From a bacterium (GTDB lineage: Bacteria; 4484-113; JALSIF01), in assembly GCA_026981635.1 (NCBI GenBank), contig JALSIF010000316.1, positions 1-7,339 of the forward strand: 7,339 bases of DNA, written 5' to 3'. The notes beneath the pieces were generated by a model. The model was not told where the DNA came from. It saw only the letters and a program-made list of their open reading frames with translations, and ran no database searches. This document shows, in pieces, positions 254-7,339 of this stretch. The position numbers were made by a program, and so were the translations under genes. The number at the start of each line of letters is the position of its first letter. The first letter of the stretch is position 1.

Positions 254-1603
254 ATGCCGGCGGAGGAGAGGCCAGCGGGGACGGTCCGGGTAAGGGGGCC
301 CTTCCGCCCCAGGGGGGCCCTGGTGGTGCGGCCGCCGGGGGACAAGTCCATCACCCACCGGGCCTACCTGCTCGCCCTGCTCAGTTCGGGCAGGTCAACC
401 CTGCTCGGACCCCTGGTGAGCGACGACACCTCCCGCACCCTCAGCCTGGTGGAGGGGCTGGGGGCGGGCACCCGTTGGGTAGAGGGAGGGGTGGAGATCG
501 CCGGAGTGGGCCTCGGGCGGCTGAGGACCGCCCCCGGCCGCAGGCTTTCCACCAGCTTCTACCTGGGCAACTCGGGCACCACCGCCCGACTGGCGCTGGG
601 CCTGCTATCCCCCCTCAGGGGGAGGGAGTTCTACCTGGACGGGGACGAGTCCCTCTGCCGGCGTCCCATGGAGCGGGTGGTGGACCCCCTGAGGGAGATG
701 GGGGCGGAGGTGAGCTACCTGGGCGAACCGGGGAGGCTCCCCCTGATGGTCCGGGGGCGGGAGCTTGCGGGGGGAAGTTTCACTATTGCGGTGGCCTCGG
801 CCCAGGTAAGGTCGGCATTGCTCATAGCTGGGCTGGTGGGAGGGGTGGGGGTGGCGGTAAGCCTCCCTTCCCCCGTCCGCGACCACCTGGAGCGGCTGAT
901 GGCCTTCCTGGGCCTGCCGGTGGAGGTGGAGGAAGGAACGGTGGAGCTTTCCCGGGTGGATGAGGTGCCGCCCCTGAATCTGCCCATCGTGGGGGACCTG
1001 AGCGCGGCGGCCTTCTGGCTCGCCCTGGGATGCACAAGGCCGGAGCTTTTGCCCTTGCGCATCGTGGGGGTGGGGCTCAATCCCACTCGCCTGGGGATGG
1101 TGGAGGCGCTCATCTCGGCGGGGGCGGAGGTGGAGCTTCTGCCCGAGGAGGAGTGGGGGGGCGAGCCGGTGGGGGAGATCCGCCTCCAGGCACCACCGCA
1201 GGAGCCCATCAGGGTGGGGCCCGGAGAGGTCCCCCGCCTGGTGGACGAGCTTCCCCTGCTCGCCCTGGTGGGGGCGGTGGGCAGGGGAATGGAGCTTTGC
1301 GGGGCGGGGGAGCTCCGGGTGAAGGAGAGCGACCGGCTGGCGGGGACCCGGGAGGTACTTGCCTGCTTTGGCATCGGGGTTGAGCTGGCGGAAGATGGCT
1401 GGCAGGTTGAGGGAGGCCAGCGGCCCCGGGCCGGCGAGTGTATGGGGCTCAGCGACCACCGGCTGGTGATGCTGGCACTGGCGGCGGCCCTTACGGCAGA
1501 GGGGGAGAGCCGTGTTGGGGGAGTGGAATGGCTCTCGGTAAGTTACCCGCAGCTGCTGAGGGAGCTTGTCCTCTTGGGGGCGGAAGTAGAACCGGCCGGC
1601 TAG
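254..1603 (+). CDS. aroA: 3-phosphoshikimate 1-carboxyvinyltransferase (EPSP synthase)
   Basis: A complete protein of 449 residues, normal for the family. It joins shikimate-3-phosphate and phosphoenolpyruvate to give EPSP plus phosphate, the sixth step of the shikimate pathway, in the cytoplasm. Landmarks seen in order: PPGDKSITHR (27-36, substrate-binding K31, S32, R36); LGNSGTTAR (104-112, PEP-binding loop); GDESLCRRPM (130-139); SAQVRSALL (182-190, Arg where many relatives have Lys); RDH (209-211); GDLSAAAF (247-254); VGLNPTR (273-279); PRLVDELP (327-334, with D331 matching the catalytic Asp); ELRVKESDR (353-361); SDHR (400-403). The GNSGTT form resembles enzymes of the Bacillus type rather than the GNAGTA form of E. 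coli, and the glycine linked to glyphosate sensitivity is present (inference by motif alignment). The start is supported by GGAAGGA five bases upstream. It overlaps the convergent lptB by four bases at the stop codons. No other aromatic-pathway gene is visible nearby. Confidence 0.97.
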   Translation: MPAEERPAGTVRVRGPFRPRGALVVRPPGDKSITHRAYLLALLSSGRSTLLGPLVSDDTSRTLSLVEGLGAGTRWVEGGVEIAGVGLGRLRTAPGRRLSTSFYLGNSGTTARLALGLLSPLRGREFYLDGDESLCRRPMERVVDPLREMGAEVSYLGEPGRLPLMVRGRELAGGSFTIAVASAQVRSALLIAGLVGGVGVAVSLPSPVRDHLERLMAFLGLPVEVEEGTVELSRVDEVPPLNLPIVGDLSAAAFWLALGCTRPELLPLRIVGVGLNPTRLGMVEALISAGAEVELLPEEEWGGEPVGEIRLQAPPQEPIRVGPGEVPRLVDELPLLALVGAVGRGMELCGAGELRVKESDRLAGTREVLACFGIGVELAEDGWQVEGGQRPRAGECMGLSDHRLVMLALAAALTAEGESRVGGVEWLSVSYPQLLRELVLLGAEVEPAG

Positions 1604-2499
1604 GCAGGGGGCTCCTGAGGGGAGGACTCCCCGCCGGGGGGAGGTTCGGCGCGCATCATCACCGTGCGGGTGTGGGGGCTTCGCTCCAGGCGGAAGCGCT
1701 GGCCGAGGAAGTATTTGCGGGCCAGCTCGTTCTCGGCGATCTCCTCGGGGTGGCCGCTCACCAGCACCTGGCCGTCCACCATGATGTAGGCCCGGTCGCA
1801 GATGGGCAGGGTGGCCTGGACGTTGTGGTCGGTTACCAGCACCCCCAGCCCGCGTTCCTTGAGGCCGACGATGATCTCCTCCAGGGACTCAATGGTGATG
1901 GGGTCAATGCCGGTAAAGGGCTCGTCCAGCATGATGAAGTCGGGGTCGTTGGCCAGGGCGCGGGCCACCTCCACCCGGCGCCGCTCACCCCCCGAGAGGA
2001 CGTAGGCGGGGGCGTTTCTCAGGTGCCAGATGCCAAACTCGCTGAGCAGCTCCTTGAGGCGCCTCTCCTGCTCGCGGCGGGGGATTCCCCGCGCCTCCCA
2101 CACCAGGCGGATGTTGTCGGCCACGGTGAGCTTCCTGAATACCGAGGGCTCCTGGGCGAGGTAGCCGATGCCCAGACGGGCCCGCTGGTAGATGGGTAGG
2201 CGGGTGATGTCTTCGCCGTTGAGGTAGATGTGGCCTTCGTCGGGGCTGACCAGGCCGATGGTCATGTAGAAGGTGGTGGTCTTGCCGGCCCCGTTGGGGC
2301 CGAGGAGCCCCACAATCTCGCCGGGGTAGAGCTCAATGGTCACGTGGTCCACCACCGCCCGGCCCCGGTAGCGCTTGACCACCTCCTTTACCAGCAGCTG
2401 CTTCTGTGGGGCCTTGGGGGCGGCGGTGGCAATGTCCGCCTGGGAGTGGGGCAGGTCTTCGCCCTGTTCCTCTGGCTGGGGTGTCTGGTGGGTCTCCAT
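1600..2499 (-). CDS. lptB: LPS export ABC transporter ATP-binding protein LptB
   Basis: A 299-residue cytoplasmic ATPase of the Lpt system. In the known family, a LptB dimer works with LptF and LptG to drive lipopolysaccharide from the inner membrane across the periplasm. Seen: Walker A GPNGAGKTT (67-75), the LptB-typical run TTTFYMTIGLVSPDEG (74-89), ITRLPIYQRARLGIGYLAQE (98-117, Q-loop Q116), FRKLTVADNI (121-130), signature LSGGERRR (168-175), Walker B FIMLDEP (188-194, E193), D-loop GIDP (197-200), switch H225, and the LptB C-terminal block ARKYFLGQRFRL (260-271). The nucleotide-binding core is preceded by about 34 residues rich in Pro, Gln and Ala and followed by about 28 residues rich in Pro and Arg. 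Both are longer than the roughly 240-residue classical protein. The ATG at 2499 has only a weak AAGG upstream and no better start is seen. lptA, lptC, lptF and lptG are not in the window. The PqaA-like gene lies 51 bases upstream on the same strand. Confidence 0.95.
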   Translation of the reverse strand: METHQTPQPEEQGEDLPHSQADIATAAPKAPQKQLLVKEVVKRYRGRAVVDHVTIELYPGEIVGLLGPNGAGKTTTFYMTIGLVSPDEGHIYLNGEDITRLPIYQRARLGIGYLAQEPSVFRKLTVADNIRLVWEARGIPRREQERRLKELLSEFGIWHLRNAPAYVLSGGERRRVEVARALANDPDFIMLDEPFTGIDPITIESLEEIIVGLKERGLGVLVTDHNVQATLPICDRAYIMVDGQVLVSGHPEEIAENELARKYFLGQRFRLERSPHTRTVMMRAEPPPGGESSPQEPPA

Positions 2500-2550
2500 G
2501 GGAAGTCGCCTTGCCGGATTATAGACGGGGTTCGGCGCGACGGGTTCGCC

Positions 2551-3903
2551 CTAGTCCTGGGGCAGGGCGATGGGCGGGGTGCTGAGGTAGAGGGTAAGGC
2601 CGCCCAGGCGGTACTCAAACTCCACAAACAGGGCAGTGTACCCATCCTCGGGCAGGCTGACTTCGGCCTTTATTCCCTTGCCCTCCGGGAGGGAGGAAAG
2701 CTTTAGCTCCTGGGAGTGGAACTCTGCTTTCCTGAAGTCGCGTACCGCCGAGGTTGCCTGCCAGAGGCGGGCGGCGCGGGGGGCGGGGTCTGACCAGGCG
2801 GAGATGGAGAGCTTCCCCTCCTTCTGCTCGTAGCGGTAGCCCACCGCGGGGAGCTCTGCCCGGCCCGCCCCCACCAGGGTCATGAAGGCAACGGCGGGGA
2901 GTAGGCGGGAGTAGTCCTCCGCTCCGTGGCCCCGGTTGGGGACGATGAGCAGGGCGCGGGGCGGGGGGAGCTTGCCGAAGTAGAGCTGGGAGGCGTCAAC
3001 CGGCCAGTAGGGGTCGTTTGAGCCCACGATGGCAAGCTTGGGCAGGGTGAGGTGCTCCAGGTAGGAGAAGGGGTCCACGGTGGAGACCAGGAGGTCGCCC
3101 CGCGGGGTGCCCACCACCTGGGGCAGGCCCTTCTCGGTGTAGGCGGCGATCATCTCCGAGTAGTCGCCCCAAAACTCCACCTGGTGGGGGAGCTGCTTGG
3201 GGAAGTTGAGCATGTCAAAGGCGATGGGGGCGATGGCGCTCACCCGGGGGTCCAGGGCGCCGGCAAGCCAGGTGGTCCAGCCCCGCTTGGAGGCGCCGGT
3301 CAGGGTGAAGGTGGCGATGGGGACCCCATGCCCTGCCGCCACCTGCTGGACGGCGTCCATCGCCCTAACTACCGCCTTTACCATGGGAAGCAGGATGGGC
3401 CAGTCCTCCTCGCCGCTGGCCATGAACTGCTCAAAGGTGTGGGAGAGCAGATCGTCCTCGGTGAGGCCGCCAAACAGGGGCTGGAAGGGGACCTGGCGCA
3501 GGATGGCTACCGGCTGGCCGGTGAGGTCGGTGACCATCTTGCCCTGGCGGCAGTATTCCCGAAGGTCGGCCTTGAGCCGGCTATCGCTTAGGTCGTTTTT
3601 GGTGCCGCCGGTGATGTAGAGGAGGGCGTGGGGGGCAGGAGGGGGTGAGGCGGGAAGGACCAGGAAGAGCTCGTGCTGCCAGGTGACGGTGCGCCAGGTC
3701 TGGCTGGTGAGGCGAAGGCCCAGGCAGGTGGTGCCGGCGATGCCCACCTCGTCAACCTGCGAAAGCTCAAAGCTTGGGTCGGGGCGGTGAAGGTAGGCGG
3801 GAAGCAGGGAGGGATGGGCAGCGTGGGCGGGCAGGGCAAGGAGGCCAAGGGCCACAAAGAACAGGGAGAGAAACCTTGGGACCATCCGCATCATGGGAAC
3901 CAT
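2551..3903 (-). CDS. PhoPQ-activated pathogenicity-related (PqaA) family secreted hydrolase
   Basis: About 450 residues when started at the ATG at 3903. The family (PhoPQ_related, named after Salmonella PqaA) has an alpha/beta-hydrolase fold; substrates are poorly known. Seen: a basic-hydrophobic signal peptide (RMVPRFLSLFFVALGLLAL then PAHA, with likely signal peptidase cleavage near residue 28), so export is expected. Family blocks follow: LTSQTW, LLYITGGT, AILRQVPFQPL, EDW-ILLPMVKAVVRAMD, LTGASKRGWTTWL, VDPFSYL and SNDPYW. By position, the Ser of GASKRG (S205), Asp of SNDP (D297) and His of RGHG (H326) form a plausible catalytic triad (inference). The frame is open upstream to 4089, but those 62 codons lie in palindromic repeats and read as Pro/Gly/Arg-rich nonsense, so I reject that start. 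Other ATGs at 3894, 3891 and 3885 are possible; none has a clear Shine-Dalgarno sequence. It lies 51 bases upstream of lptB and is probably co-transcribed with it. Confidence 0.88.
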   Translation of the reverse strand: MVPMMRMVPRFLSLFFVALGLLALPAHAAHPSLLPAYLHRPDPSFELSQVDEVGIAGTTCLGLRLTSQTWRTVTWQHELFLVLPASPPPAPHALLYITGGTKNDLSDSRLKADLREYCRQGKMVTDLTGQPVAILRQVPFQPLFGGLTEDDLLSHTFEQFMASGEEDWPILLPMVKAVVRAMDAVQQVAAGHGVPIATFTLTGASKRGWTTWLAGALDPRVSAIAPIAFDMLNFPKQLPHQVEFWGDYSEMIAAYTEKGLPQVVGTPRGDLLVSTVDPFSYLEHLTLPKLAIVGSNDPYWPVDASQLYFGKLPPPRALLIVPNRGHGAEDYSRLLPAVAFMTLVGAGRAELPAVGYRYEQKEGKLSISAWSDPAPRAARLWQATSAVRDFRKAEFHSQELKLSSLPEGKGIKAEVSLPEDGYTALFVEFEYRLGGLTLYLSTPPIALPQD

Positions 3904-3930
3904 GATAGCGGGAAACCCCACCCCTGGCCC

Positions 3931-4069
3931 CCTCCCCGCAGGCGGGGAGGGGAGAACACCCCTCCCCCTAACCCCCTCCCCGCAAGCAGGGAGGGGGGAG
4001 TTTTCGTAATCCCTCCCCTCGTGAGGGGAGGGTGGCCGCCGTGAGGCGGGCGGGTGGGGTGGAGCTTGG
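3931..4069 (+). repeat. 139-base direct repeat, copy A
   Basis: This unit matches the stretch at 4549-4687 base for base, with 3 substitutions in 139 and no gaps, in the same orientation. It contains three of the palindromes, a conserved centre (TTTTCGTAAT) and a G-rich right end reading GGCGGGCGGGTGGGGTGG at 4045-4062. The substitutions fall within palindrome arms and centres. Confidence 0.93.
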
Positions 4070-4082
4070 CCTCCGCAGGAAG

Positions 4083-4125
4083 ACCCCACCCCCTAGCCCC
4101 CTCCCCGCAAGCAGGGAGGGGGGAG
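4083..4125 (+). repeat. Truncated extra repeat unit
   Basis: It begins ACCCCACCCC like the stretch at 3915 and holds one palindrome (4098-4121). It then breaks off where the TATAAT of the small gene begins. It lacks the TTTTCGTAAT centre and the right-hand half seen in the 139-base units. Confidence 0.7.
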
Positions 4126-4128
4126 AGA

Positions 4129-4134
4129 TATAAT
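4129..4134 (+). promoter_or_regulatory. Candidate -10 box of the small membrane gene
   Basis: A perfect TATAAT lies immediately to the right of the last palindrome and 36 bases before the start codon at 4171. At a 17-base spacing the -35 position reads CGCAAG inside the repeat, which is a poor match. The promoter would therefore depend on the -10 box, an activator or the repeat context. This is inference from one hexamer, but TATAAT is unusual in such GC-rich surroundings. Confidence 0.45.
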
Positions 4135-4139
4135 CCGCT

Positions 4140-4156
4140 CTGGAAACTGGTTCCAG
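4140..4156 (+). promoter_or_regulatory. Inverted repeat CTGGAA-N5-TTCCAG (operator or 5' hairpin)
   Basis: CTGGAA and TTCCAG are perfect six-base arms around ACTGG. The element starts six bases after the TATAAT and ends two bases before the GGGAGG ribosome binding site. At that position it could be an operator over the transcription start, or a small hairpin at the 5' end of the mRNA that affects ribosome access. Its role is inference; the symmetry is seen directly. Confidence 0.5.
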
Positions 4157-4158
4157 AC

Positions 4159-4164
4159 GGGAGG
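4159..4164 (+). promoter_or_regulatory. Ribosome binding site that decides the small-gene start
   Basis: GGGAGG lies six bases before the ATG at 4171. An in-frame ATG at 4165 directly abuts it and is too close, so 4171 is chosen. Confidence 0.65.
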
Positions 4165-4170
4165 ATGGCT

Positions 4171-4461
4171 ATGGAAGAGCTGGTTCAAGAGCTCAGGAAG
4201 AAGAATGACTTTCTTCTCTGGAGCTTCTGGGCGATGGTGATTATGAGTGATTGGACGATGGGTTGGAGAAGGCCAGCTAGTCCAATTGAAACGATCGGGG
4301 AGTGGATTGTTCTTTTTGTCCTGGTTGTGCTTGTTCCCACTCTGGTGATCAAGTTCAGGCGGATAGGTGAGAAGGGCCTGGAGCTGTGGATCGTGATAGT
4401 CGTTATCTTGATTTCTTGGTTGGGAAGTCTGGTCTTCGCGGTGAATCGGCTTATTCTTTAA
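4171..4461 (+). CDS. Small hypothetical membrane protein (96 aa)
   Basis: I do not recognise a family. The protein begins with a charged amphipathic stretch (MEELVQELRKKND). Three hydrophobic segments follow: about 13-31 (LLWSFWAMVIM, ending in a Trp-rich stretch), about 45-60 (WIVLFVLVVLVPTLVI) and about 71-91 (ELWIVIVVILISWLGSLVF). A basic loop KFRRIGEK lies at 61-68. It is probably an inner-membrane protein. The start at 4171 is set by GGGAGG six bases upstream; the frame is open back to 4054, but that extension is translated repeat. Codon use differs from all neighbours: many A/T-ending codons (GAA, ATT, CTT, TTG) and about half G+C, against about two-thirds around it. The gene is flanked on both sides by the same repeats and opposes both minus-strand neighbours. 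This suggests acquisition as a cassette (inference). A true gene is favoured by the ribosome binding site, promoter-like box and coherent hydrophobic pattern. Confidence 0.7.
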   Translation: MEELVQELRKKNDFLLWSFWAMVIMSDWTMGWRRPASPIETIGEWIVLFVLVVLVPTLVIKFRRIGEKGLELWIVIVVILISWLGSLVFAVNRLIL

Positions 4462-4479
4462 GGGCGAGTGCTTGAGACA

Positions 4480-4517
4480 ACATTCCCGAATCTTTCCTGA
4501 TTGAGGGACATTCCCGA
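4480..4517 (+). repeat. Short direct repeat ACATTCCCGA
   Basis: ACATTCCCGA occurs at 4480-4489 and again at 4508-4517, just after the small gene and just before the palindromic block. It may mark the edge of an inserted element, or be chance. Confidence 0.4.
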
Positions 4518-4521
4518 CCCC

Positions 4522-4615
4522 TCCCTGTGAGCAACCCCTCCCCCGACCCCTCCCCGCAGGCAGGGAGGGGAGAACACCCCTCCCCCTAACCCCCTCCCCG
4601 CAGGCGGGGAGGGGG
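4522..4615 (+). repeat. 94-base direct repeat, first copy
   Basis: It begins TCCCTGTGAGCAACCCC and contains two palindromes. It matches 4688-4781 with 2 substitutions and no gaps. Its right part overlaps the 139-base copy B. Confidence 0.9.
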
Positions 4616-4687
4616 GAGTTTTCGTAATCCCTCCCCTCGTGAGGGGAGGGTGGCCGCCGTGAGGCGGGCGGGTGGGGTGGAGCTTGG
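4549..4687 (+). repeat. 139-base direct repeat, copy B
   Basis: The second copy of the unit at 3931-4069, offset by 618 bases, same orientation, 3 mismatches. The small membrane gene and its control region lie between the copies. The G-rich right end is at 4663-4680. Confidence 0.93.
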
Positions 4688-4781
4688 TCCCTGTGAGCAA
4701 CCCCTCCCCCGACCCCTCCCCGCAGGCAGGGAGGGGAGAATACCCCCCCCCCTAACCCCCTCCCCGCAGGCGGGGAGGGGG
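4688..4781 (+). repeat. 94-base direct repeat, second copy
   Basis: It matches 4522-4615 with 2 substitutions. One of them turns a broken C-tract into an unbroken run of ten C at 4743-4752. It starts exactly where copy B of the 139-base unit ends, as if a composite unit of about 166 bases had begun to repeat in tandem and broken off at 4781. Confidence 0.9.
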
Positions 4782-4841
4782 AACGCGTGGGGGGCGGGTT
4801 TTTATGGAGATGGGGTAATTCGGAGGGATGTGGGAATGGGG

Positions 4842-5885
4842 CTAGCTGTTTACCCGACTTAGCTCCTCTATCACCTTCTCTGCCGGGATGTCCAGGTCGC
4901 AGAGGGCATTGGTGAACTCCACTGCGCGGGCAAGGTGGGCAGGATCGGCGGGAAGGCCGGCGTTTACCTGCTCAACCATAAGCTTCAGTCCCGCAATCAC
5001 CCGGTAGAAGTTGAGCGCCGCCTGGTCAAGGGGAGGGTCGCCGAAGACCCGGCGCTGGTCCTGGTAGCTCTCAATGAACTTGGCCCCGATAACCTCGGAG
5101 TAGAAGACCCGAAGGTGAAGCTCGGCCACTGCCACGTCAAAGAGGGGGTCCCCCATGAGGGAGTCGCCCCAGTCAAGGACTGCCTTTACCACCTCCCCCT
5201 GGACGATGACATCGTCGGGGGTGAAGTGGCCGTGGAGCAGGCGGTAGCCGGTGCAGGGGAAGCTCTGCCAGCGCTCAAGGATCCACTGGCACCAGGGCTG
5301 GAGGGGGGCGTAGAGGGGGTTTTGGGCAAACCCCTCGGCGATGGAGCCCATCAGGGCGGCAAAGGATAGCTCGTCATCAAGCATGGGGTAAGGCAGGGGG
5401 AGGTGCTCGCTGCCCCGCAGGTGGTGGAGGTGGGAGAGCTGGAGGGCGAGCTGGTAGGTGCGGGTGAGGCCCAGCTCGCCGAAGCGGTCGGTAAGTCCGG
5501 GGCGAAGGTCGGGGGCGCTCCCCTCCACATAGTCCATCACCAGAAATGGCTCCCCCAGCGCCTCGGCGTCGGTCTCCACGCTCCAGGCGAAGGGGACCGG
5601 GTAGCCGTGGCCGTGAAGGAACTGGAGGACGGAGAACTCCCTGAGGGCAGAATCGGGGGCGGGGCGGATGTCGGTGTCGCGGTGTAGCTTGATCACCCAG
5701 TCCAGGGGCTTCTTCTTGCCGGTGAGGGAGTGGTAGAGGCCGCGAAAGCGGTAGAGCTGGTGGCGGGGACCAAGCTTTAGCACCGAAAGCTCAGGGGAGG
5801 AGATCTCCCCCCTAAGGCCCGCCTTGCGGCGCAGAAAGGTGATGAAGCGGTCCCTGAGCCCGGCAAGTTCTGCCTTGGTGACCAT
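4842..5885 (-). CDS. Aminoglycoside phosphotransferase-fold protein, catalytic loop altered
   Basis: 347 residues from the ATG at 5885. An upstream frame to 5954 overlaps the ABC gene and has no advantage. The fold is that of the APH/choline-kinase family, which phosphorylates small hydroxylated molecules with ATP. Seen: WVIKL (63-67, Lys K66), ALREFSVLQFLHGHGYPVP (80-98, Glu E83), EPFLVMDYVEG (112-122, hinge), the loop HGHFTPDD (218-225), then VLDWGDSLMGDPLFDVA (236-252, metal-binding D238). The usual loop is HGD----N. Here the catalytic Asp is His and the Asn is Asp, while the Lys, Glu and DWGD motifs are intact. It may therefore be a pseudokinase, or an enzyme with a changed mechanism (inference). 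A second charged stretch near the C-terminus (DIPAEKVIEEL) is unremarkable. AAGGAG lies only two bases before the ATG, which is close. The gene follows the exporter by 22 bases, probably in one operon. It is not evidence of antibiotic resistance. Confidence 0.82.
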   Translation of the reverse strand: MVTKAELAGLRDRFITFLRRKAGLRGEISSPELSVLKLGPRHQLYRFRGLYHSLTGKKKPLDWVIKLHRDTDIRPAPDSALREFSVLQFLHGHGYPVPFAWSVETDAEALGEPFLVMDYVEGSAPDLRPGLTDRFGELGLTRTYQLALQLSHLHHLRGSEHLPLPYPMLDDELSFAALMGSIAEGFAQNPLYAPLQPWCQWILERWQSFPCTGYRLLHGHFTPDDVIVQGEVVKAVLDWGDSLMGDPLFDVAVAELHLRVFYSEVIGAKFIESYQDQRRVFGDPPLDQAALNFYRVIAGLKLMVEQVNAGLPADPAHLARAVEFTNALCDLDIPAEKVIEELSRVNS

Positions 5886-5907
5886 GGCTCCTTTTTCTAC
5901 CTTAGGG

Positions 5908-7339
5908 CTAGCCTCCCCGGCTGGCCACCTCCTCCTCCAGGTAGAAGGAGGCATAGACCCCGCCGCGGCGGATGAGCTCCCGATGGGTGCCGGTCTCCAC
6001 GATGGCCCCGTCCCTTATCACCACGATGAGGTCGGCGTCCTTGATGGTGGAGAGGCGGTGGGCGGCGATCAGGGTGGTCCTGCCATACATGAGCTTCTCC
6101 AGCGCCCGCTGGACCACCTGCTCGCTCTCCTTGTCCAGGGCGGAGGTGGGCTCGTCCAAGAGGAGGATGGCGGGGTCCTTGAGCAGGGCGCGGGCGATGG
6201 CGATGCGCTGCTTCTGGCCGCCAGACAGCCCCACCCCGCCTTCGCCGATCACCGTGTCGTAGCCGCGGGGAAGCTCAATGATGAAGTCGTGGGCGCCGGC
6301 CGCCATGGCGGCGTTGAGCAGATCTATCTCGTCCACCCCCTGACAGCCGTACATCAGGTTCTCGCGCACCGTGCCGTGGAAGAGGATGGTCTCCTGGGCA
6401 ACGTAACCGATGTGGCGGCGAAGGCTGGCAAGCTTTATGTCGCGCACGTCAATCCCGTCAATCAGCACCCGGCCCCGCTGGGCCTCGTAGAAGCGGGGGA
6501 TGAGGTTTAGGATGGTTGACTTTCCGGCCCCGCTTGCCCCCACCAGGGCCACCGTCATGCCGGGGCGGATGTGGAGGTTGAAGTCCCTAAGCACCTCCTC
6601 CCCGCCCGGGTAGCTGAAGTAGACGTGGTCAAAGAGGATCTCCCCGCGGCACTCCCTAAGCTCAACCGCCCCCGGGCGGTCCTCAATCTCAATGGGCAGG
6701 TCCAGGATCTGGAAGATGCGCTCGGCGGGGGCGGTCCCCTGGGCGATGGTGACAAAGACCCGGCTAAGCTTGGTAAGCGGCGAGACCATGAGGGCGGCAA
6801 GGCCGGCCAGGGCCAGAAGCTCGCCCGCACTCATCACCCCCTGGGCGATCTGGACCGCCACGTAGTAGAAGATGACCACCGGGCCCAGAAAGCCCAAAAA
6901 CTCCACGAAGGGGACCAGGAAGCTGGCGTACCAGGCAAACCTCAGGCCCTCGGCGAGGCCCTGGCGGTTGATGCGGCGGTAGCTTTCAAACTCCTGCTCT
7001 TCGGTGCACTGGGTCTGGACCAGGCGGAGGATGGCGATCCCCTCCTGGAGCTCGCCGGTGAGCCGGCCCAGGATCTCCATCAGCTGGCGGTTGATGTCGC
7101 GAAGCAGGGGGGTCATGAAGCGAAGGAGGAGGAAGACCACCCCCATGATCACCGCCATAAGGATCAGCACCCGCCAGTCGATCAGGGCGATGGCGATGAT
7201 GCCGGCAAGCACGGTGATGGGGGCGGTGACCAGGCTCTCCTGGGCGGAGTTTAGGAAGTCGCCCAGCTTCTGGACGTCGTTGGTGATGCGGGCCATGAGC
7301 TCGCCGGTGCGGCTCTGGTCCAGGGTGGCAAAGGAGAGG
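5908..7339 (-). CDS. ABC exporter half-transporter, MsbA-like (5' end missing)
   Basis: 477 residues are visible; the start lies beyond the right edge. The first residues in frame read LSFATLDQSRTGELMARITNDV, the usual region after the second membrane helix of type IV ABC exporters. About four hydrophobic helices follow (visible residues about 35-54, 56-74, 136-161 and 171-186). The ATPase domain then shows FSYPG (A-loop Tyr), Walker A GASGAGKST (267-275), Q-loop at 315, signature LSGGQKQR (371-378), Walker B ILLLDEPTSALD (391-402) and H-loop AAHRLST. In this family, dimers of such half-transporters flip lipids or drugs across the inner membrane. IGYVAQETILFHGTVRENL resembles the MsbA branch, and the presence of lptB in the window fits lipid A-core flipping. 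Substrate cannot be proven from sequence, so no symbol is given. Confidence 0.92.
   Translation of the reverse strand, partial: LSFATLDQSRTGELMARITNDVQKLGDFLNSAQESLVTAPITVLAGIIAIALIDWRVLILMAVIMGVVFLLLRFMTPLLRDINRQLMEILGRLTGELQEGIAILRLVQTQCTEEQEFESYRRINRQGLAEGLRFAWYASFLVPFVEFLGFLGPVVIFYYVAVQIAQGVMSAGELLALAGLAALMVSPLTKLSRVFVTIAQGTAPAERIFQILDLPIEIEDRPGAVELRECRGEILFDHVYFSYPGGEEVLRDFNLHIRPGMTVALVGASGAGKSTILNLIPRFYEAQRGRVLIDGIDVRDIKLASLRRHIGYVAQETILFHGTVRENLMYGCQGVDEIDLLNAAMAAGAHDFIIELPRGYDTVIGEGGVGLSGGQKQRIAIARALLKDPAILLLDEPTSALDKESEQVVQRALEKLMYGRTTLIAAHRLSTIKDADLIVVIRDGAIVETGTHRELIRRGGVYASFYLEEEVASRGG

What the first reader, a model, noticed from the sequence alone, without database searches (positions are those of the whole stretch)
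3915..4790. Foreign-looking small membrane gene enclosed by repeats on both sides
A 96-residue membrane-protein gene with lower G+C and different codon use sits between blocks of the same palindromic repeat, in opposite orientation to the minus-strand genes around it. It has its own promoter-like box and ribosome binding site. The arrangement looks like a compact non-autonomous cassette: cargo carried between repeat arrays, with no transposase present. The protein family is unknown to me.
Basis: partly seen in the sequence, partly recalled or inferred. Interest (0 to 1): 0.6.

Follow-up and report, generated by a model that had tools for sequence, protein, structure and literature searches.

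The report
Repeat-bracketed foreign gene inserts
A small membrane-protein gene of unknown family sits between two same-facing blocks of a hairpin-forming repeat, and the same genome has at least three other such repeat-bracketed inserts of unfamiliar genes, one of them at a place where related bacteria have nothing, which suggests the repeats are joints where new genes get spliced in.

Summary
A 96-residue, helical, probably membrane-spanning ORF (4171-4461, +, GC 0.48, GC3 0.61) lies between two direct-oriented blocks (3912-4126; 4522-4782) of a mosaic palindromic repeat. Its neighbours have GC3 0.84-0.90. It has an ideal Shine-Dalgarno. The "promoter" is only a TATAAT with no -35. No homologue was found in 385 genomes, a genome-contig scan, viral contigs, plasmids, phages or family libraries, apart from sub-threshold hits.

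Repeat blocks occur on only 6 contigs. Four pairs bracket different ORFs (seven in all, none above a family threshold), and each bracketed interval is in the lowest 1-3.5% of genome GC. One pair plus cargo splits two genes that are adjacent in four class relatives (empty site). The window segment lies between an ABC exporter and LptB, which are adjacent in two relatives.

There is no evidence for transposition: no target-site duplication, no symmetric outer ends, no Y1 transposase, no integron boxes. I favour homologous recombination between repeat blocks, as proposed for neisserial repeat arrays and minimal mobile elements. Passive accumulation in the same dispensable gaps is the main rival. 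New variant of a known kind; moderate interest.

The parts
3912..4126 (+). Left repeat block: P1, P1, P2, P3 hairpins (unit 3915-4060, inverted ends ACCCCACCC...GGGTGGGGT), then a truncated unit with one P1
4129..4134 (+). TATAAT box at the edge of the left block; no recognisable -35 hexamer
   Evidence: sequence; two-hexamer scan negative
4159..4164 (+). Shine-Dalgarno GGGAGG, 6 nt before the ATG at 4171
   Evidence: sequence
4171..4461 (+). Small protein gene, 96 aa, three predicted helices with two strongly hydrophobic segments (about residues 41-59 and 69-91), GC 0.48, no family
4522..4800 (+). Right repeat block, same orientation as the left one; complete unit about 4532-4678 plus a tandemly duplicated partial unit (4688-4782) ending in GGGTTTTT
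3972..4007 (+). P1 hairpin followed by GAGTTTTCGT: terminator-like in + orientation (copy at 4590-4625)
2551..3894 (-). PhoPQ-activated (PqaA-like) protein, part of the segment between LptB and ABC; not found in class relatives
4842..5885 (-). APH-type phosphotransferase-fold protein, same segment; not found in class relatives
1600..2499 (-). LptB-like ABC ATPase: conserved left boundary gene, 65-70% identical in class relatives
5908..7338 (-). ABC exporter (membrane + ATPase): conserved right boundary gene, adjacent to LptB in G003 and G006

Best explanation
The small gene is lineage-specific, foreign-looking DNA inserted into the chromosome between two direct-oriented mosaic palindromic repeat blocks. 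Several such blocks are scattered in this genome. Shown: the blocks, their direct pairing, the low GC and family-less content between them, and the insert nature of one bracketed segment. Inferred: a resident block serves as the patch of homology at which incoming DNA carrying a similar block is joined by homologous recombination (circle-plus-block single crossover, or double crossover). That leaves a block on each side in the same orientation, and the reverse event would delete the cargo and leave a single block such as the one on C133. The hairpins may also terminate or insulate transcription around the cargo. The 96-aa protein is probably a small inner-membrane protein whose role is host- or niche-specific rather than part of the movement machinery, because the other blocks carry unrelated ORFs.
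For: Blocks were detected on only 6 of 317 contigs, yet come in close direct pairs: C316, C29, C297a, C297b. The bracketed intervals are each at the 1.0-3.5% low tail of mean GC against random intervals of equal length in the same genome. The seven bracketed ORFs match nothing in Pfam or NCBIfam above threshold, nor in PHROGs or PADLOC. Empty site: TM180 and HisC lie 0-112 nt apart in G003, G004, G006 and G009 (two families), but 1.8 kb apart on C297, the difference being block-ORFs-block. The ABC exporter and LptB are 70-93 nt apart in G003 and G006, but 3.4 kb apart in the window. Not a binning artefact: LptB and HisC on these contigs are single copy and closest to same-class genomes. Repeat-array-promoted exchange next to surface genes, and whole-gene cassettes joined purely by homologous recombination, are described for Neisseria (PMC3898611).
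Against: No close relative (same genus, family or order) is held, so gain, loss or exchange at a block was not watched directly. Relatives with the empty site lack the repeats altogether, so the state 'solo block at the same site' was not seen. [quoted passage not shown] only the window pair is. Direct orientation could also reflect local duplication. Two or three blocks (C133, C138, C158 end) bracket nothing visible.
Confidence: 0.5

Rival explanations
1. Passive co-residence: palindromic intergenic repeats and short-lived orphan genes both pile up in the same dispensable gaps. The repeats spread and duplicate locally and have nothing to do with how the genes arrived.
For: Repeats are intergenic. 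One block lies between core genes without cargo (C133). The right block has an obvious local tandem duplication. Many low-GC islands in the same genome have no repeats: 16 of 21 islands in 391 kb sampled lie on contigs without blocks. Similar palindromes occur in unrelated bacteria without cargo, in a Rhizobium nirB-nirD gap and upstream of a murA-like gene in G140.
Against: On all three contigs with two or more blocks, blocks enclose low-GC ORFs on both sides within about 0.6-0.8 kb. Seven of ten blocks lie next to DNA in the lowest 8% of local GC.
Confidence: 0.33
2. Composite non-autonomous transposon: two miniature elements with inverted ends (ACCCCACCC / GGGTGGGGT) and a core are moved in trans by a transposase, as in TIME-COMP elements or mobile insertion cassettes.
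For: The unit has short inverted ends and MITE-like size. TIMEs flanking a core are known to transpose (PMC4133298).
Against: No target-site duplication at any of four inserts. The outer right end of the window insert is a truncated unit without the inverted end. No Y1 transposase in the 85% complete genome. Arrays are mosaics, not clean copies.
Confidence: 0.1
3. The 96-aa ORF is not a functional gene, or is a decayed remnant; the segment is just leftover foreign DNA.
For: Chance of an ORF of at least 96 codons between the blocks is about 4%. No homologue anywhere searched. No two-hexamer promoter.
Against: SD at ideal spacing, codon-position GC pattern expected of coding DNA (GC3 0.61 > GC1 0.51 > GC2 0.33), coherent helices and hydrophobic segments.
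Confidence: 0.2

Closest known systems
Neisserial intergenic mosaic elements (dRS3/RS repeat arrays) and minimal mobile elements
   Same: Mosaic arrays of short palindromic units next to variable, often surface-associated genes; inserts between two conserved genes without transposase, attributed to homologous recombination (PMC3898611).
   Different: Different repeat sequence and phylum; here arrays sit on both sides of the insert, a dozen blocks rather than hundreds; exchange between strains not shown.
TIME-COMP elements / mobile insertion cassettes
   Same: Two small non-autonomous elements around a cargo core, no transposase inside (PMC4133298).
   Different: No target-site duplication, no intact symmetric ends, no related transposon family recognised.
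MITE-flanked integrons in Acinetobacter
   Same: Cargo flanked by MITEs, which are noted as homologous-recombination hotspots (PMC10969869).
   Different: There the flanking MITEs are identical copies around resistance integrons; here they are diverged mosaic arrays around orphan ORFs.
REP / REPIN palindromes (GTAG and CGTC superfamilies)
   Same: Short intergenic hairpins, often clustered, possibly transcribed and terminator-like (PMC3733652).
   Different: No GTAG or CGTC tag seen in the window blocks, longer GC stems, no Y1 transposase found.

Membership tests
Minimal mobile element (MME) | Whole-gene insert between two genes that are neighbours elsewhere | tested here: met
   TM180-HisC adjacent in 4 relatives, split by block-cargo-block on C297; ABC-LptB adjacent in 2 relatives, split in the window, there together with the PqaA and APH genes
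Minimal mobile element (MME) | Different cassettes at the same site in different strains | not testable with these tools
   No genome of the same genus, family or order is held
Minimal mobile element (MME) | Joined only by homologous recombination, no own recombinase | tested here: inconclusive
   No recombinase gene in the bracketed segments (family searches); the recombination itself was not observed
Neisserial intergenic mosaic element | dRS3 (CGTC-1) repeat sequence | tested here: not met
   Unit sequence unrelated (definition in PMC3733652)
MITE | Small multicopy element with terminal inverted repeats, no ORF | tested here: met
   About 140-nt unit, ACCCC[AT]CCC...GGG[TA]GGGGT ends, about ten blocks
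MITE | Target-site duplication | tested here: not met
   Flanks of the four inserts share nothing beyond chance; single-unit insertions without their array could not be compared
REP/REPIN | Terminal GTAG or CGTC tag | tested here: not met
   Inspection of the window blocks
REP/REPIN | REP-associated Y1 transposase in the genome | tested here: inconclusive
   PF01797: none, control genomes ring, but the genome is 85% complete
TIME-COMP / mobile insertion cassette | Intact transposon ends at both outer borders and target-site duplication | tested here: not met
   Outer right end truncated; no duplication
Integron cassette array | attC core sites RYYYAAC / GTTRRRY in the repeats | tested here: not met
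   None on either strand of four blocks
DUF805 (small protein) | Score above Pfam gathering threshold | tested here: not met
   17.3 bits against cut-off 25.7

The most novel reading that the evidence does not exclude
A dispersed, transposase-free cassette system: structured mosaic repeat blocks act as docking sites where sets of otherwise unknown membrane, lipoprotein and cysteine-rich secreted genes are integrated and exchanged as direct-repeat-bracketed inserts, in a lineage outside the well-studied phyla.
Probability: 0.2. Interest if true: 0.65.

Novelty: new variant of a known kind. Interest (0 to 1): 0.42.

Why it matters
Repeat arrays as landing places for new genes have been argued mostly from Neisseria. 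Here an unrelated, uncultured lineage shows several repeat-bracketed inserts of family-less genes, one with an empty site in four relatives. This gives a concrete, testable way in which orphan membrane and secreted genes could enter genomes without transposases, and a rule for finding more of them: search between direct-oriented repeat blocks.

Tried and rejected
Contamination of the genome bin by repeat-rich contigs: rejected (single-copy LptB and HisC closest to same-class genomes). Known RNA family: no Rfam match near its gathering score. Structure search with the 96-aa model (pLDDT 72, pTM 0.35): no PDB match better than E 1.4, uninformative. PDB sequence search: none. Homologues in viral contigs, phages, plasmids: none. 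Weak hit in G029 (29% over 59 aa, E 7e-4) treated as chance hydrophobic similarity. Homology among the bracketed ORFs: none. Plasmid match in an Azospirillum urea carboxylase gene: coding-sequence coincidence. Literature search with the repeat letters: no description found. My first palindrome pattern had the wrong loop length and was replaced.

Full report
What is there. The window is the whole of contig C316 of an 85%-complete, 1.75-Mb genome in 317 contigs whose nearest held relatives are only of the same class. The contig carries AroA, then on the minus strand LptB, a PqaA-like protein, an APH-type protein and an ABC exporter. Between the PqaA and APH genes lie 948 bases holding a left repeat block, a small plus-strand ORF and a right repeat block.

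The small gene. It has 96 codons (4171-4461) with a Shine-Dalgarno GGGAGG six bases before the ATG. GC is 0.48 and GC3 0.61, against GC3 0.84-0.90 for the other window genes. Two strongly hydrophobic segments and a weaker amino-terminal one are seen, and the single-sequence model is three helices. No family passes its threshold (DUF805 at 17.3 bits against 25.7). No convincing homologue was found in 385 representative genomes, a genome-contig scan, viral contigs, plasmids, phages or the PDB. A chance ORF of this length between the blocks has p about 0.04, so its coding status is likely but not proven.

The repeats. Each block is a mosaic of a unit of about 140 nt with inverted ends ACCCC[A/T]CCC ... 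GGG[T/A]GGGGT. The unit contains one or two P1 palindromes (CCCCTCCCCGC-NN-GCGGGGAGGGG), a T-rich spacer, a P2 palindrome (CCCTCCCCTCGTGAGGGGAGGG) and a small P3 hairpin. Twelve units aligned from five contigs keep 92% of 28 pairs. Five pairs change on both sides, and the covariation score exceeds all 500 shuffles and all slid controls. So the hairpins are maintained or copied as hairpins; with so few, related copies this is suggestive rather than proof of selection. P1 plus its T-rich tail reads as a terminator in the plus orientation. The window blocks are 92% identical to each other (98% over the 135-nt core), closer than other blocks (75-91%), so one of them is probably a copy of the other.

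The rest of the genome. The unit was detected on only six contigs: C316, C297, C29, C133, C138 and the end of C158. It is absent by pattern from nine class relatives and nearly absent from 385 genomes. On every contig with two or more blocks, the blocks form direct-oriented pairs around low-GC ORFs. C29: a cysteine-rich secreted-looking ORF plus a lipoprotein-like ORF. C297a: a short signal-peptide ORF plus a lipoprotein-like ORF. C297b: two secreted-looking ORFs. C316: the small membrane ORF. A 0.29-GC small membrane ORF also abuts block 3 of C297. The seven bracketed ORFs and this neighbour match no family in Pfam, NCBIfam, PHROGs or PADLOC at the thresholds used, and they are not related to each other. 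Compared with random intervals of the same length, the four bracketed intervals have mean-GC ranks of 1.1%, 1.0%, 1.1% and 3.5%. Against this, 16 of 21 low-GC islands in the 391 kb sampled have no block nearby, and C133 has a block without cargo between MiaB and a large ATPase-like gene.

Empty sites. In G003, G004, G006 and G009 the orthologue of the C297 180-aa protein ends 0-112 nt before HisC. On C297 the two are 1.8 kb apart, and what lies between is block, two ORFs, block. In G003 and G006 the ABC exporter is followed directly by LptB. In the window these two genes, in the same order and strand, are separated by 3.4 kb holding APH, block, small gene, block, PqaA, and the APH and PqaA genes were not found in the class relatives searched. 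These relatives belong to other families, so the inserts are only dated as younger than that split, and loss in the relatives is less parsimonious but possible for the window site. Contig misbinning is unlikely: LptB and HisC are single copy and closest to same-class genomes.

Mechanism. Transposition as a unit is disfavoured: no target-site duplication at four inserts, a truncated outer end, no Y1 transposase. Integron-type sites are absent. Direct-oriented blocks on both sides are what homologous recombination between a resident block and block-carrying incoming DNA would leave. This is inferred, not observed. The main rival is that repeats and orphan genes merely share dispensable gaps.

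Comparison. The nearest described situation is the neisserial one, where mosaic repeat arrays are associated with surface-protein genes and proposed to promote exchange, and where minimal mobile elements are whole-gene inserts between conserved genes joined by homologous recombination (PMC3898611). Composite TIME elements (PMC4133298) and MITE-flanked integrons (PMC10969869) show the cargo-between-small-elements layout with transposition. GTAG and CGTC tags that define the two REP superfamilies (PMC3733652) are not seen here. I recall from memory that GC-rich palindromes of this general type are common between genes in many bacteria; the Rhizobium and G140 matches fit that, but it was not tested systematically. 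I therefore call this a new variant of a known kind.

Noticed in passing
window 2499-5908: ABC exporter and LptB, neighbours in two other-family relatives, are split by 3.4 kb here; the PqaA-like and APH-type genes in the gap are themselves missing from the class relatives searched.
   Followed up: partly
L035 (C297) 4392-4703, minus: Another small membrane ORF with GC 0.29, no family, next to repeat block 3 and downstream of the HisC-PlsC pair.
   Followed up: partly
L036 (C29) 697-1938 and L035 (C297) 1070-2305, 5272-6552: Bracketed segments tend to hold a short or cysteine-rich secreted-looking ORF next to a lipoprotein-like or secreted ORF; the pairs are not homologous to each other.
   Followed up: partly
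window 4522-4616 and 4688-4782: Tandem duplication with a 166-base period inside the right block.
   Followed up: yes
L041 (C275) 622-2487: A DNA methyltransferase-like ORF (DPPY motif) followed by a GC 0.35 ORF: a likely restriction-modification island without these repeats.
   Followed up: no
L126 1430-1545 (Rhizobium plasmid) and L121 1452-1540 (G140): Similar GC-rich palindromes between nirB and nirD, and upstream of a murA-like gene, in unrelated bacteria and without cargo.
   Followed up: partly
L037 (C133) 1131-1310: A complete repeat block between MiaB and a large ATPase-like gene with no cargo.
   Followed up: no
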